Both the position numbers and the translations under genes were made by a program. Below the pieces are notes generated by a model. The model searched no databases. It saw only the letters and a list, made by a program, of their open reading frames with translations, and had not been told where the DNA came from. A stretch of 64,000 bases of DNA from positions 124,001 through 188,000 of the forward strand of contig DATAJP010000002.1 of assembly GCA_036262055.1 (NCBI GenBank). The letters are read 5' to 3'. Position 1 is the stretch's first letter; every line of letters begins with the position of its first letter. The stretch is from Ignavibacteria bacterium (GTDB lineage: Bacteria; Bacteroidota; Ignavibacteria; Tepidaquicellales; Tepidaquicellaceae). Of the stretch, positions 14,931-38,102 are shown one piece after another.

Positions 14931-16048
14931 AGCATATTTTCATAAATTTTCACATATGACTCACAGACTTTAGTCCAGCTTAATTCATTATATATTTTCT
15001 TTGATTCGGATGAAATGCGGTTTTGTAATTCTTGATTTCCGTTTAGCTCAATTAAAATATTTATTAGAGAATTTTCGTCATTAAAATTAAATGCAAACCC
15101 ATTAACATTGTTATCAATTAATTCTGAGCTTCCTGTTTGGTTGGTTAAGATTGGAATTAGCCCTGCCGACATACACTCAACTGCTGTTATTGAAAACGAA
15201 TCGCTTTTACTTGCAGAAACATATACCGTTTTGTCTTTTAGAAAATTAGCAAAATCAACAGTATCCATTCTTTTATGAAATGTAAGTATAAGTTTCTCTG
15301 AGTTACTCGTTTCAATTCTTGAATCACTAATGACATACAGCTCTACCGAAAAATTTAGTTTTCGCAATGCGTTAAGCAAGAAATCAAAACCTTTTAGTTT
15401 ATTTATGACTTCTCCGACAAAAACAATTTTCAAAACATTATTTTTGAAATTCTTATTCACGGATATTTTGTGAAAAATTTCATCGACACCGTTTTTGATA
15501 AATTGAGTTTTAGCTTTATTCAATTGATAATATTTCGAAGCTAAGTTGAAAGAGTTTTGCGATAAAAATAAGAGCTTATCAGAACGCTTAAAAATTAATT
15601 TCTCGCAGGTTTTATCCTTATGTTTCAATGAAGTCGATATGCTCGACCCATTAATTTCATTCTCATAAATTCTTATACCATGCACATTATAAATTATTTT
15701 ATAGCGAAATAATGGTCTTAAAAAAAATAAAATAGAATAGAATCTTTCATATGTAATAAGGTGGATAATACGAGGCCTGCATTTCAAAACAGTCAAAATC
15801 AGCTTGAAAATCCCTGTTTTTAACACCGGACTGCCATTCACTTCCTGAACCAGTTCGTGTCCGAATAGTTTTTTTATAATACCATATTTTTTACCGTCGA
15901 GAAAATAATCTATAAAAACGGACTGATGATTTTTTGTATAAGCTTCAAATATTCTCTTCGCTACTTTTTCTGAGCCGGAAAGTTTTTCCTGAGGATTAAA
16001 CGTTCCTGCAAAGATTACTTCGGTTTTATTTCGATTTAATTTTCTCAA
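14927..16048 (-). CDS. Glycosyltransferase family 4
   Basis: A 373-residue GT-B glycosyltransferase. The N-terminal half includes FAGTFNPQEKLSGSEKVAKRIF, and the C-terminal donor site includes VFVGEVINKLKGFDFLLNAL and SASKSDSFSITAVECMSAG. In the latter the first acidic residue of the EX7E motif is replaced by Asp/Ser (SDSFSITAVE), leaving the second Glu. It overlaps the upstream methyltransferase by 23 bases and the downstream GT2 by 4, so all are probably one transcript. Confidence 0.9.
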   Translation of the reverse strand: MRKLNRNKTEVIFAGTFNPQEKLSGSEKVAKRIFEAYTKNHQSVFIDYFLDGKKYGIIKKLFGHELVQEVNGSPVLKTGIFKLILTVLKCRPRIIHLITYERFYSILFFLRPLFRYKIIYNVHGIRIYENEINGSSISTSLKHKDKTCEKLIFKRSDKLLFLSQNSFNLASKYYQLNKAKTQFIKNGVDEIFHKISVNKNFKNNVLKIVFVGEVINKLKGFDFLLNALRKLNFSVELYVISDSRIETSNSEKLILTFHKRMDTVDFANFLKDKTVYVSASKSDSFSITAVECMSAGLIPILTNQTGSSELIDNNVNGFAFNFNDENSLINILIELNGNQELQNRISSESKKIYNELSWTKVCESYVKIYENML

Positions 16049-16676
16049 TAAAATCTTTTAGACCTAATTTATATTTTAAAATATTCTTAGCGTGCTCAAT
16101 ATCATATTTCCTAAGATTAATTTTCTCGTTTGAAAATAAAATAACTGCAAATTTACGTTCAACGTAATCTTTGAAAATCTTCATTTTCTTATGCTGAAGA
16201 AAATCAAAATCGGAAATCTCCCAGCTGCTCAAATGATTTTCATATTCATTATAGTCGCATTTCTGCTGCCAGTTGGTTCCTATCGGAATATTAACGAGAG
16301 AATACTTTCCCTTCTCAAGAGCAAGCTTCATAATTTCATAAGCTTTGTCTTTGGTAAAATGTTCTATAACATCGCCGAAATTTATTAAGTCATATTGATT
16401 TTTTGTCTCACGTAAAAAATCATATGCATCCTGAGTATAAATATTATTATAAAAATATGAATGGTATGGTTTCAGATAATCCGGAAAAATTTCTATGCCA
16501 TCGATCCTTCTTTTCCATTCTCCTTTATAATTATTGTTATCCCATACTTCAAGAAATTCGCGCATTAAGATGCCCCATCTTCCGAAGCCGACTCCAACAT
16601 CAAGAATTGTCTGAGGGTTAATCTTCCTGATTAACTCAATATTATAAGAAATATTTTGCCAGTTAGATGTAGGCAT
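16026..16676 (-). CDS. SAM-dependent class I methyltransferase
   Basis: A 216-residue Rossmann-fold methyltransferase. Motif I is ILDVGVGFGRWG (24-35), and a later acidic motif is LINFGDVIEHF, as in UbiE/Methyltransf_11-type enzymes. In this setting it probably methylates a sugar or an intermediate of the polysaccharide. A longer reading from 16703 is open, but I chose ATG 16676 because it forms a TAATG stop-start overlap with the flippase gene, as is common in this operon. The target is unknown. Confidence 0.85.
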   Translation of the reverse strand: MPTSNWQNISYNIELIRKINPQTILDVGVGFGRWGILMREFLEVWDNNNYKGEWKRRIDGIEIFPDYLKPYHSYFYNNIYTQDAYDFLRETKNQYDLINFGDVIEHFTKDKAYEIMKLALEKGKYSLVNIPIGTNWQQKCDYNEYENHLSSWEISDFDFLQHKKMKIFKDYVERKFAVILFSNEKINLRKYDIEHAKNILKYKLGLKDFIEKIKSK

Positions 16677-17934
16677 TATGCTTGGGCAGGAGCTTCCCGC
16701 CAATGTTTGTTTAATAAATAATATCCTCCGAAGAAAATAAAATACTCCGTTATCAGCGTGATTACAGCAGCCGCTGCAATTCCATATTGAGGAATAAAAA
16801 TTAAATTAAGTAAAACATTTATCACAAGTCCGATCAGGGTTACATACATGTTGCCCTTAAAGTCACCGATTCCGTTAAGAATAACACCAGTCAGATTATT
16901 TAAGCTGATACCCAATACCGCAAATGAAAGAATTTTTATGACAAAATCAGAGGCAGCAAACTTATCGGTATAAATTATAGAAATTATTGTTCCACCTCCA
17001 AAGAATAGTATTAAGTTAAGAATTATGGATATAAATATTAATAGAGAAGCGTATTTATTGAATAAAATCTTTAGAGCTGTTTTATTAGAGCTTAAGTTCG
17101 ATGCTTTGTTTAAGCCGACAATTAATAAAAACGCAAACACTAAAGTTGCCGATTTATAAAGACCGTATCCGACGCTGTAATAACTCGTCTCATAAAAATT
17201 TGTGAATTTTGAAATAAGCACAATATCAATTTTATCATAAAGAAAATTAAAAAGCACTGCAAGCGCAAGTGGAAAAGATATTTTTAAAATTTTAATAACT
17301 GATTTGAATGGAATGGATCTATATTTAGTCTGCAAGGATTTAATTACAAATACTAATAAGTAAAGAGTTAAAATGAGGTTGCCGATAAGATAAAAACCAA
17401 GACTGAACTCAATCTGGAAATCAAGCAGAAGCGTTTCCAAAAATACGCATAAAAGAATTGCAAATCTTATGATGTTTTGAACATAAAACAGTTCTTTAAA
17501 TTTATTTTTTGCAAATAAAATTTTGCTGAAGAGGTTAATGAAATTCGACAAGAAAATTATCAAAACAATCTCAATAACAAGAAGCGGACTGAAGAACGGA
17601 TAAATAATAAGAAATGAAATAAAACTTATTAATATATAAACAGGGAAAGAATAAAAAATTATTTTAACGGAAGCATAAACTAAGTCAGTCGAAGCTTTTG
17701 CATCCTGCGCAATGGTTTTTTGCAGATAAATCGGGAGCCCGAAGTCAAAGAAGAGAATTACAATGTTGGATAATGCAAACGATGAGATGATTATTCCGTA
17801 ATCATCGACGGGATAGAAGCGGGCAAAGATGAGAAAAAGCAAAAAAAAAATATTTTATCCGAAACGGTCAGAAAGAAAACATATTTGCTTTCCAGAAACA
17901 GCTTTACAATTTTATTTAAGGAAAATTTACCCAT
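16676..17934 (-). CDS. Wzx-type polysaccharide flippase, apparently frameshifted
   Basis: A membrane protein of the MOP exporter/oligosaccharide flippase family with about 12 predicted helices; it would flip the undecaprenyl-linked repeat unit. The main reading frame covers 17842-16676 (LFLIFARFYPVDDYG onward), but that starts inside helix 1. An ATG at 17934, in TAATG overlap with the wzi-like gene, opens MGKFSLNKIVKLFLESKYVF, the expected N-terminus, in another frame. The two frames meet in a run of ten A (plus strand, 17841-17850). One extra base there, or a -1 slip, restores a continuous protein of about 419 residues. It may be a sequencing error, a pseudogene, a slippery site or a phase-variable switch. 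Confidence 0.85.
17841..17850. repeat. Ten-base A/T homopolymer at the flippase frameshift
   Basis: Ten consecutive A on the plus strand (T on the coding strand) within codons 29-32 of the flippase gene. Eleven bases (or eight) would keep the frame; ten breaks it. It is the longest homopolymer I noticed in the window. Confidence 0.9.
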
Positions 17935-19625
17935 TAAATGTAGAAATAAAAATATCCGTTAAAATAAAAATCTTTATACTTTTGGTTTTTGTAAACATAA
18001 TCAGATAACCAATACTGAAAATTTAAGTCTATAAACAACTGTTTCAACGGTTGGAAATTAAGTGAAAATGAAATATTATTGCTGTTAATTCTGTATCCCT
18101 GTAGAAAAGTATTTTTTACAGGAACTGTCTGGTCTCCTTCACCAAAATTTATGTCTCCACCGAAGTTACGAACGAGATTTCCCAAGCTGTCAAGAATAAA
18201 TCCCGAGCCGTGCCTTGTGTAGCCGTATCTTAATTTTACATTAAATCTATTTGAGATAAAATACTGAAGTTCTCCCGCAATTTCATCTGAGTTGGACTCA
18301 ATGTGGTGTCCAAGCGGCAAAGCCCAGTTTGTGTAATTGCTCTTGTTGCTTCTATGAGAGTAAACAAACGGGTCGAGACGAGTGTATTCAGTTGTGAATG
18401 TCAAGCCGGGTAAGGTGAAAGCATCATTCCAAAATATTCCAAGCTGATAACCAAATTTATTATCGTTATATGTCGAATCATCTTTGAACACCGTTTTCAG
18501 ATTTATGTCATCGATTAAAAACGTCCATTGCAAGCCCAGATTTTTTACAGGAATGTATTCAAAATCCAGTCCCAAGCTTGTATTACTGCTTTCCGTGCTT
18601 GCCTGACCTGTGTTTAAATCTGCCGATGTTAAAAAGCTAATCGGGTTAAGATATGTTATGCTAAACGGTGTAGCTGTTGAAACTATGCTTTCAAAAAAAC
18701 CTAGCTTAAAAGTTTCAAATAAGTTTAAGTTTAATCTATGCGATGCAATTATTTTTGTCGGAATGTCCCGGCCGAGCGAATCTCCTTTTAACGAACCGAA
18801 GCTGAAAGAGTAATTTACTTTTTTGAAGTTCAAATCAAGCTTAACCAAATCAAACGGTATTGTATTATTCGAGTAATATAATTTATCCATATATCCAAAT
18901 CCCTGATTTATCTGTTCACGTCCAATCATCACAGATATCCACTCATCATTTTTAGGTGCATAACGCAAATATCCTCTGAAAGAATCGAAGTTTTTCTTTT
19001 CAAGAACAAATTTATTATTTGCTTTATATTTTATGTCGTTGTTGATTGCAAATTGAATATCGGCGGAATCGCCTATTAGCTTTTCACCGTTTGTTGCCTT
19101 CAAATAAAATCCGAGAATATTTCTGAACGTTACGCGAATGACAATTCCTGCTTCACCTAAAGTAATTTTATGATTCCCGAGCGAATCGCCGTTACCGACT
19201 TTTTGGTTTACACCGAAATATAAATTTGTGAAAAGCGAATTAGAAGAATCGGCATCATAATATAAATATTTATTTTTGTTGCTTAAAATATTGCCTCCTT
19301 GGAGAATATTTTCTGCTTTTACTTTACCTGTAAGCTCGTAACTATAATCAACTAAATATTCGTCCAGAATATTTTTATCAGTGTTTGCTAATTTACTTTT
19401 TTGGAAGCCAATCTGTTTTAAAAAATTCGAGATTTGATTGCGTGATAAAGGAAGATTTGAAGAATTGTATTGAGGAATCAATCCTTGCAATTGCATACGT
19501 TTAAGAAAAATGTAAACATTATCCTGAACGGGAGTCAAATCCTGCTGAGAAAAAGAAATAGAAGTAACTAAAAAAAGAAATCCGGTTAAAAATAAATAAA
19601 ATGATGTTTTATTTTTCAGATTCAA
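17934..19625 (-). CDS. Capsule assembly Wzi-like outer membrane beta-barrel
   Basis: A 563-residue secreted protein with an N-terminal signal peptide (SFYLFLTGFLFLVTSISFSQQ). A short helical region, with TPVQDNVYIFLKRMQLQG as in the Wzi N-terminus, precedes a long run of alternating strands (aromatic-hydrophobic/polar) ending in aromatic YFYFYI, a typical outer-membrane barrel end. The central GREQINQGFGYMDKLYYSNN matches the Wzi signature region. E. coli Wzi is a lectin that attaches group 1 capsule to the cell surface; a similar anchoring role fits this locus. The stop overlaps the ATG of the flippase. Confidence 0.8.
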   Translation of the reverse strand: MNLKNKTSFYLFLTGFLFLVTSISFSQQDLTPVQDNVYIFLKRMQLQGLIPQYNSSNLPLSRNQISNFLKQIGFQKSKLANTDKNILDEYLVDYSYELTGKVKAENILQGGNILSNKNKYLYYDADSSNSLFTNLYFGVNQKVGNGDSLGNHKITLGEAGIVIRVTFRNILGFYLKATNGEKLIGDSADIQFAINNDIKYKANNKFVLEKKNFDSFRGYLRYAPKNDEWISVMIGREQINQGFGYMDKLYYSNNTIPFDLVKLDLNFKKVNYSFSFGSLKGDSLGRDIPTKIIASHRLNLNLFETFKLGFFESIVSTATPFSITYLNPISFLTSADLNTGQASTESSNTSLGLDFEYIPVKNLGLQWTFLIDDINLKTVFKDDSTYNDNKFGYQLGIFWNDAFTLPGLTFTTEYTRLDPFVYSHRSNKSNYTNWALPLGHHIESNSDEIAGELQYFISNRFNVKLRYGYTRHGSGFILDSLGNLVRNFGGDINFGEGDQTVPVKNTFLQGYRINSNNISFSLNFQPLKQLFIDLNFQYWLSDYVYKNQKYKDFYFNGYFYFYI

Positions 19626-36845: not shown

Positions 36846-38102
36846 TTAATTTAACTTAAAAACATATAAAAACAAAAATCCGTTAATCGTAAGGTAAGAT
36901 ATCAGGGTAGAGATTGCTGCGCCGTCTGCACCAAATCTGCTGGTGATAAATGTATGGCAAAGAAATGCCACAACAAGAAGCATAATACCTGATAGAACCA
37001 AGACCCGTACTTTTGAAACTGCAAATAAAATGTTTGCGGACGGACTTAATATTAATGAAAAACCGGCGGATACTGACAAAATTATTAACGGCACCTGTGC
37101 TTCCTCATATTGACTGCCGGCAAATATCCTAATAATCCAATTTGATGTCAGCAAAACGATGATGACAAGCCCAAAAGCAGCGGGGACAGTGAAACGCATA
37201 GATTTTACTAAAAGCGCTTTCATTTCATTAATGCTTTTCAAAGAAGAAAATTTTGGAAGAAGAACCGTGTGAATGGAAGCAAGACCGATAATGAAAAAAG
37301 AATAAAGCTTCGATGCAACACTGTACTCACCCACATCTTTAAATGAAAAAAATCTTGACATCATTAATATATCAAGCTGGCTTGCAATCACAAGAAGCGA
37401 GCTGTATAAAATATAATAGCGAGAACCGTAAATCTCTTTTTTAACAATATTAAAATTAAAGTTACTGCTTAATAAAACTTTCCTATTCATAAAAGCAGTA
37501 AACAAAAAAAACATACACGGTGTTGCTGCTATCACAATCAAAACTGCAGGTAAAGAAATTAAATCGAGATAAATTAAAATCAGATATGATAAAATTATAA
37601 ACAACGCCTGCAGAAAAGTAATCGCTGCAGAAAACCTGAAAAGCTCTCTCCCTTGATAATAAGCAGTTATGAAATTAACCAATGAAGTTCCGAGTATCCC
37701 CGCTATGATTAATAAAGAATAAACATTTTGTCTGCCATATTCTTTTAATATCTCAGGCTTAACCATTATAACAAGATAAAAGCATATTGAAAGTACAATA
37801 CCTATAAGGATTGTCGAATAAAAATTCGAAGCAGAGAACTTTTTTTGTTCTTCGATATTTGATTTAGCACCAGCTAATTTTGTTATGAAAGAAAAATTCA
37901 ATCCCTGCAGGAAGACTCCTGAACCAATTACGATAAGCGACTGAATAAGAGATATCATTCCAAACTCATCCTGAGTAATATACCTGAGAACAATGACTAA
38001 AGATAAGGCAATTAAGATTTTTGAACCGATCTGAGAAACAAACACCATGCTGATGTTGTGCAGTGTTTTATTTTTTATCAGTCCCGTTAAACTTTGTTTC
38101 AT
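36846..38102 (-). CDS. Oligosaccharide flippase (Wzx-like, MOP superfamily)
   Basis: A 418-residue membrane protein with 12 or more predicted helices. The N-terminus ISMVFVSQIGSKILIALSLV and YYQGRELFRFSAAITFLQ are typical of polysaccharide flippases, and the C-terminal FGADGAAISTLISYLTI matches the conserved GxxGAA segment. It should flip lipid-linked oligosaccharide across the inner membrane. It is intact, unlike the flippase at 16676, and lies 1 base from the asparagine synthase gene. Confidence 0.9.
   Translation of the reverse strand: MKQSLTGLIKNKTLHNISMVFVSQIGSKILIALSLVIVLRYITQDEFGMISLIQSLIVIGSGVFLQGLNFSFITKLAGAKSNIEEQKKFSASNFYSTILIGIVLSICFYLVIMVKPEILKEYGRQNVYSLLIIAGILGTSLVNFITAYYQGRELFRFSAAITFLQALFIILSYLILIYLDLISLPAVLIVIAATPCMFFLFTAFMNRKVLLSSNFNFNIVKKEIYGSRYYILYSSLLVIASQLDILMMSRFFSFKDVGEYSVASKLYSFFIIGLASIHTVLLPKFSSLKSINEMKALLVKSMRFTVPAAFGLVIIVLLTSNWIIRIFAGSQYEEAQVPLIILSVSAGFSLILSPSANILFAVSKVRVLVLSGIMLLVVAFLCHTFITSRFGADGAAISTLISYLTINGFLFLYVFKLN

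What the first reader, a model, noticed from the sequence alone, without database searches (positions are those of the whole stretch)
17839..17936. Flippase gene broken or switched at a run of ten A/T
The N-terminal 30 codons (ATG 17934, in TAATG overlap with the gene before) and the remaining 388 codons of the flippase are in different frames, and the frames meet at ten identical bases. One more base restores a normal 419-residue flippase. Three explanations exist: an assembly indel, phase variation of surface polysaccharide by slipped-strand mispairing, or programmed -1 frameshifting on the T run.
Basis: seen in the sequence. Interest (0 to 1): 0.62.

Follow-up and report, generated by a model that had tools for sequence, protein, structure and literature searches.

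The report
Conserved slippery T-run in flippase gene
A bacterial gene for a sugar-flipping membrane protein is written in two reading frames joined at ten T's, and because distant relatives carry exactly the same ten-T break, the cell probably makes the whole protein by letting its copying machinery slip there rather than carrying a broken gene.

Summary
On the minus strand T10 (17841-17850) separates 28 codons of a Wzx-type flippase (ATG 17934) from 388 codons in the -1 frame. An assembly artefact is unlikely: of 28 relatives whose 5' region I read, two (Ignavibacteria MAGs UBA6667 and UBA9002, another genus of the same family) also have an uninterrupted run there, and both have exactly T10 and the same -1 break. 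The other 26 have T runs of at most 8 and are in frame. The three broken genes form one clade (100/99) at saturated synonymous divergence. Both pieces are under purifying selection; the N-terminal piece only in its own frame (p 0.0009-0.002 per pair). In the two UBA genomes no other coding run of ten or more breaks a gene. The junction lies inside transmembrane helix 1. Best reading: a retained slippage site, most likely transcriptional slippage (mxiE/tssM-like), that yields a fraction of full-length flippase. Phase variation is the main rival: three of three 'off' genomes cannot exclude it, and no reads or RNA were available. It is a new member of a known kind, in a gene class for which I found no earlier report.

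The parts
17841..17850 (-). T10 run at which the two reading frames meet
   Evidence: same length and place in UBA6667 and UBA9002
17791..17934 (-). zero-frame ORF: 28 N-terminal flippase codons, the run, then out-of-frame codons to a stop (47 aa)
   Evidence: purifying selection in this frame only
16676..17842 (-). -1-frame ORF: remaining 388 codons of the MOP/Wzx flippase
   Evidence: Pfam Polysacc_synt_3 1.3e-11 and Polysacc_synt 1.6e-8; stop overlaps the next ATG (TAATG)
17934..19625 (-). upstream Wzi-like capsule assembly gene, stop overlaps the flippase ATG
   Evidence: Pfam Caps_assemb_Wzi 3.2e-17; same neighbour in UBA6667 and UBA9002
16026..16676 (-). downstream methyltransferase-like gene (MPTSNWQNISYNI..), ATG overlaps the flippase stop
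   Evidence: same neighbour in relatives; no Pfam match, function inferred from a glycine-rich motif only

Best explanation
The gene is a functional Wzx-type (MOP superfamily) flippase whose frame is kept split at a slippery T10. During transcription RNA polymerase slips on the U:A hybrid over the run, so a fraction of the mRNAs have a run length that joins both frames and gives full-length protein. Unslipped mRNAs give only a 30-47-residue peptide. The effect would be a low, fixed dose of flippase, tied by overlapping stop/start codons to the neighbouring genes. Shown here: the split, its conservation in three genomes of at least two genera, selection on both pieces, a position inside TM1, and the lack of a start codon at the run in the two UBA genes. 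Inferred: that slippage happens, that it is transcriptional rather than ribosomal, and that a low dose is the benefit.
For: Same T10 and same -1 break in UBA6667 and UBA9002; in the zero frame both stop directly after the run (TAA, TAG). The three form one clade at 100/99. Synonymous sites are saturated between this genome and the UBA pair; dS 1.2-1.9 within the pair. The N piece is under purifying selection only in frame 0, p 0.0009-0.002 for each of three pairs; the C piece likewise. All 26 in-frame relatives examined have 26-34 residues before this point and T runs of at most 8. The first start codons of the large frame in the UBA genes are 17 and 60 codons after the run. The junction falls inside helix 16-39 of a confident model of an in-frame relative (pLDDT 88.9), whose best PDB match is WzxE (TM about 0.75). 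Runs of nine or more are avoided in coding sequence. Baranov 2005 takes a 9A/9T run of conserved length across homologues as very likely used for transcriptional slippage (PMC1088944). Loss of Wzx with the pathway on is lethal in E. coli (PMC11813082), which argues against a true 'off' state.
Against: No RNA, protein or read data. Only three genomes, two of one genus, one clade. Slippage efficiency of Ignavibacteria RNA polymerase is unknown. This genome has two other N-terminal breaks at runs of ten or more (L009, L011), which could be phase variation or sequencing error. Ribosomal slippage on T_TTT_TTT is not excluded.
Confidence: 0.55

Rival explanations
1. Phase variation by slipped-strand mispairing: the run changes length during replication, T10 is 'off' and some cells carry an 'on' length, so surface polysaccharide export is switched in a subpopulation.
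For: A surface-polysaccharide gene with a mutable tract near its 5' end. Polysaccharide genes are known targets: icaC in S. aureus (PMC4117637), siaD in N. meningitidis (cited in PMC6249986). This genome has a T12 frame break in the signal peptide of a predicted exported protein, as contingency loci would. Selection on both pieces also fits a gene that is often on.
Against: All three genomes show the same length and the 'off' state; freely varying tracts would be expected to differ over saturated divergence. Loss of the flippase alone is lethal in E. coli when the pathway is on (PMC11813082).
Confidence: 0.27
2. Programmed -1 ribosomal frameshifting on T_TTT_TTT at the end of the run.
For: The shift has the right direction and the heptamer is present in all three. 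In UBA6667 and UBA9002 a stop codon stands directly after the run, which could help slipping.
Against: No conserved downstream structure: z-scores 0.20, -0.15, 0.06. No Shine-Dalgarno-like sequence just upstream (sequence). Seven T would be enough, so ten are not needed.
Confidence: 0.1
3. Assembly or consensus error: the true run has an in-frame length.
For: Long homopolymers are error-prone. In this 4-contig genome two other genes are broken at runs of ten or more (L009, L011).
Against: The same T10 in two independent assemblies of another genus. In those two genomes the other coding runs of ten or more are in frame. In this genome seven other coding A10 runs are in frame, though three of them lie near the 3' end of their gene.
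Confidence: 0.05
4. Pseudogene on the way to loss.
For: The frame is broken.
Against: Both pieces are under purifying selection, and the break is kept over saturated divergence without further disabling changes.
Confidence: 0.03

Closest known systems
Shigella flexneri mxiE (and spa13) transcriptional slippage
   Same: Two overlapping ORFs joined when a non-templated nucleotide is inserted at a run of U; slippage is needed for the longer product (PMC1088944, PMC5009743)
   Different: T3SS regulator and apparatus genes, shown by experiment. Here it is a membrane flippase with comparative evidence only
Citrobacter rodentium tssM1 A11 slippage
   Same: A membrane-protein gene interrupted after a long homopolymer, whole product made by RNA polymerase slippage (PMC4256274)
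   Different: A11 in a late part of the gene, and both products are needed; here T10 near the 5' end and the short product is a 30-47-residue peptide
icaC slipped-strand phase variation in S. aureus
   Same: Frame change in a membrane protein of surface polysaccharide synthesis through a simple repeat (PMC4117637)
   Different: Tetranucleotide repeat with observed length variation between isolates; no length variation seen here
WzxE lipid III flippase (MOP superfamily)
   Same: Same fold as a confident model of an in-frame relative (TM 0.74-0.77)
   Different: About 15% identity; WzxE serves enterobacterial common antigen, the substrate here is unknown

Membership tests
Genes expressed by programmed transcriptional slippage | Uninterrupted A/T run of about nine or more at the frame junction | tested here: met
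   T10
Genes expressed by programmed transcriptional slippage | Run length and frame relation conserved among homologues while both pieces stay under selection | tested here: met
   3 of 3 with an uninterrupted run; few genomes
Genes expressed by programmed transcriptional slippage | mRNA population with run lengths not present in the DNA | not testable with these tools
   no RNA data
Programmed -1 ribosomal frameshifting | Slippery heptamer in phase | tested here: met
   T_TTT_TTT
Programmed -1 ribosomal frameshifting | Stimulatory structure or upstream SD-like element | tested here: not met
   fold z-scores near 0; no SD-like sequence seen. Helpful but not strictly required
Slipped-strand phase-variable gene | Run length differs between cells or strains | tested here: inconclusive
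   only one genome per species held; all three T10
MOP superfamily polysaccharide flippase (Wzx-like) | Pfam Polysacc_synt / Polysacc_synt_3 above cut-off and MOP fold | tested here: met
   (fold tested on an in-frame relative)

The most novel reading that the evidence does not exclude
A lineage of Ignavibacteria sets the dose of a polysaccharide flippase by programmed RNA-polymerase slippage at a T10 kept out of frame for a very long evolutionary time, so that every wild-type gene copy looks formally broken.
Probability: 0.5. Interest if true: 0.62.

Novelty: new member of a known kind. Interest (0 to 1): 0.5.

Why it matters
Few chromosomal, non-mobile genes are known to keep a frame break for slippage, and for a flippase I found no earlier case in the papers held. 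If true, such genes are wrongly annotated as pseudogenes, and this would be a simple example of dose-setting for a transporter whose absence ties up the shared undecaprenyl carrier. It also shows how comparing relatives can separate a conserved slip site from an assembly error without reads.

Tried and rejected
Downstream RNA structure as a frameshift stimulator: an 8-bp hairpin 34 nt after the run exists only here and folds no better than shuffles. Independent start of the large ORF at TTG 17842: the UBA genes have no start codon there, and relatives carry the N-terminus. The first genome-contig scan found nothing; the second, with an alignment, named the relatives. A class-wide search (391 genomes) added no further broken homologue among its listed matches. 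My first filter for other broken runs asked for 25 codons upstream and missed two short N-terminal breaks in this genome. Orthologue searches for those two gave none close enough to test. No solved structure matched by sequence, but the fold search did.

Full report
OBSERVATION. The minus strand of the window reads ATG at 17934 (overlapping the TAA of the Wzi-like gene), 28 codons, then T10 at 17841-17850. The zero frame runs on to a stop at 17791 (47 aa). The other 388 codons, 16676-17842, lie in the -1 frame and match Pfam Polysacc_synt_3 (1.3e-11) and Polysacc_synt (1.6e-8). T10 is the longest homopolymer of the window. Runs of nine or more A or T are avoided in the window's coding sequence: 2 seen against 10.2 expected when synonymous codons are shuffled, 0 of 300 shuffles as low (the flippase T10 itself lies outside the counted ORF).

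RELATIVES. A search of related genomes found homologues in most of the order. Two of the nearest, at 46-47% identity and from another genus of the same family, had the same short open frame. Their DNA shows exactly T10 at the same codon and the same -1 relation. They are Ignavibacteria bacterium UBA6667 (DKKL01000034.1) and isolate UBA9002 (DOWN01000346.1). In both, the zero frame ends at once after the run (TAA, TAG), and the first start codon in the large frame comes 60 and 17 codons later. The neighbours, transaldolase - Wzi - flippase - methyltransferase-like - glycosyltransferase, are the same in all three. All 26 other relatives whose 5' region I read are in frame, carry 26-34 residues before the equivalent point, and have T runs of at most 8. 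So the three uninterrupted runs are exactly the three broken genes (1 in 3654 if the labels were dealt at random; relatedness makes this too strong). A wider search of 391 genomes of the class showed no further case among its listed matches.

EVOLUTION. A protein tree puts the three broken genes in one clade (100/99), with 0.9 and about 0.8 changes per site on its two sides. Synonymous sites are saturated between this genome and the UBA pair; within the pair dS is 1.2-1.9. The short N-terminal piece shows purifying selection in its own frame and in neither other frame: Fisher p 0.002, 0.0015 and 0.0009 for the three pairs, which are not independent. The large piece does too. A pseudogene or a one-off error does not predict this.

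CONTROLS FOR ERROR. In the UBA genomes I read all runs of ten or more; those inside long coding frames are in frame except the flippase. These include four sense-T10 runs in UBA6667 (L158, L162, L163, L169). In the window's own genome seven coding A10 runs are in frame, but two others sit at short N-terminal frame breaks: a T12 in the signal peptide of a predicted exported protein (L011), and an A10 after ATG CCG ACA in a small basic protein (L009). No close orthologues exist to test those. They may be phase-variable or errors of this assembly, and they weaken the case from this genome taken alone. The flippase rests on the three-genome agreement.

PROTEIN. A model of an in-frame relative (L032, pLDDT 88.9) has its first long helix at residues 16-39; the junction corresponds to residues 30/31. 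The best PDB matches are WzxE and MurJ. So the large ORF alone would lack the first part of TM1 and everything before it; I infer that it is not a working flippase by itself.

MECHANISM. The two pieces must be joined for function. RNA-polymerase slippage on A/T runs is well documented: mxiE and spa13 in Shigella (PMC1088944, PMC5009743), A11 in tssM1 with products of 10-15 A (PMC4256274), and insertion frequencies in E. coli and Buchnera that rise exponentially with run length and, within homopolymers, occur only in A or T runs (PMC5574713). Baranov and colleagues regard a 9A/9T run of conserved length among homologues as very likely used for transcriptional slippage. The flippase meets that comparative test, with T10 and only three homologues. 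Ribosomal -1 slipping on T_TTT_TTT is possible, but no conserved structure or SD-like element was seen. Phase variation would also keep both pieces under selection, but it predicts different run lengths and some 'on' genomes; three of three are T10. Three is too few to exclude it. In E. coli a Wzx block with the pathway on is lethal (PMC11813082), which speaks against switching off the flippase alone; whether this holds in Ignavibacteria is unknown.

VERDICT. A conserved slippage site in a Wzx-like flippase, probably read by transcriptional slippage (0.55), with phase variation (0.27) as the chief rival. New member of a known kind. Interest 0.5.

Noticed in passing
L011 (G000:C2:221271-224280), run at 222771-222782, minus strand: T12 inside the signal peptide of a protein with a C-terminal sorting-like region (T9SS type); start codon and mature part are in different frames. 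A second candidate slipped tract in a surface-related gene of this genome.
   Followed up: partly
L009 (G000:C1:224917-227926), run at 226417-226426, minus strand: A10 directly after ATG CCG ACA of a small Lys-rich protein (body SKRKYGKAASKYVESA..) with start and body in different frames.
   Followed up: partly
window, minus strand, about 34 nt after the T10 (near 17786-17806): Perfect 8-bp inverted repeat GATGATTA-CGGAA-TAATCATC, not conserved in relatives and no better than shuffled sequence.
   Followed up: yes
window 36846-38102: A second, intact MOP flippase gene (418 aa) in the same polysaccharide region, beside a heparinase-like and an asparagine-synthase-like gene.
   Followed up: no
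L031-L059: Most flippase relatives appear to start with TTG, often close to the end of the gene before, suggesting translational coupling across the order.
   Followed up: no
L118 (G003:C17, about 16778-16799): A22 run next to N bases just upstream of a hydrolase-like gene in UBA6667, probably a scaffold gap artefact.
   Followed up: no
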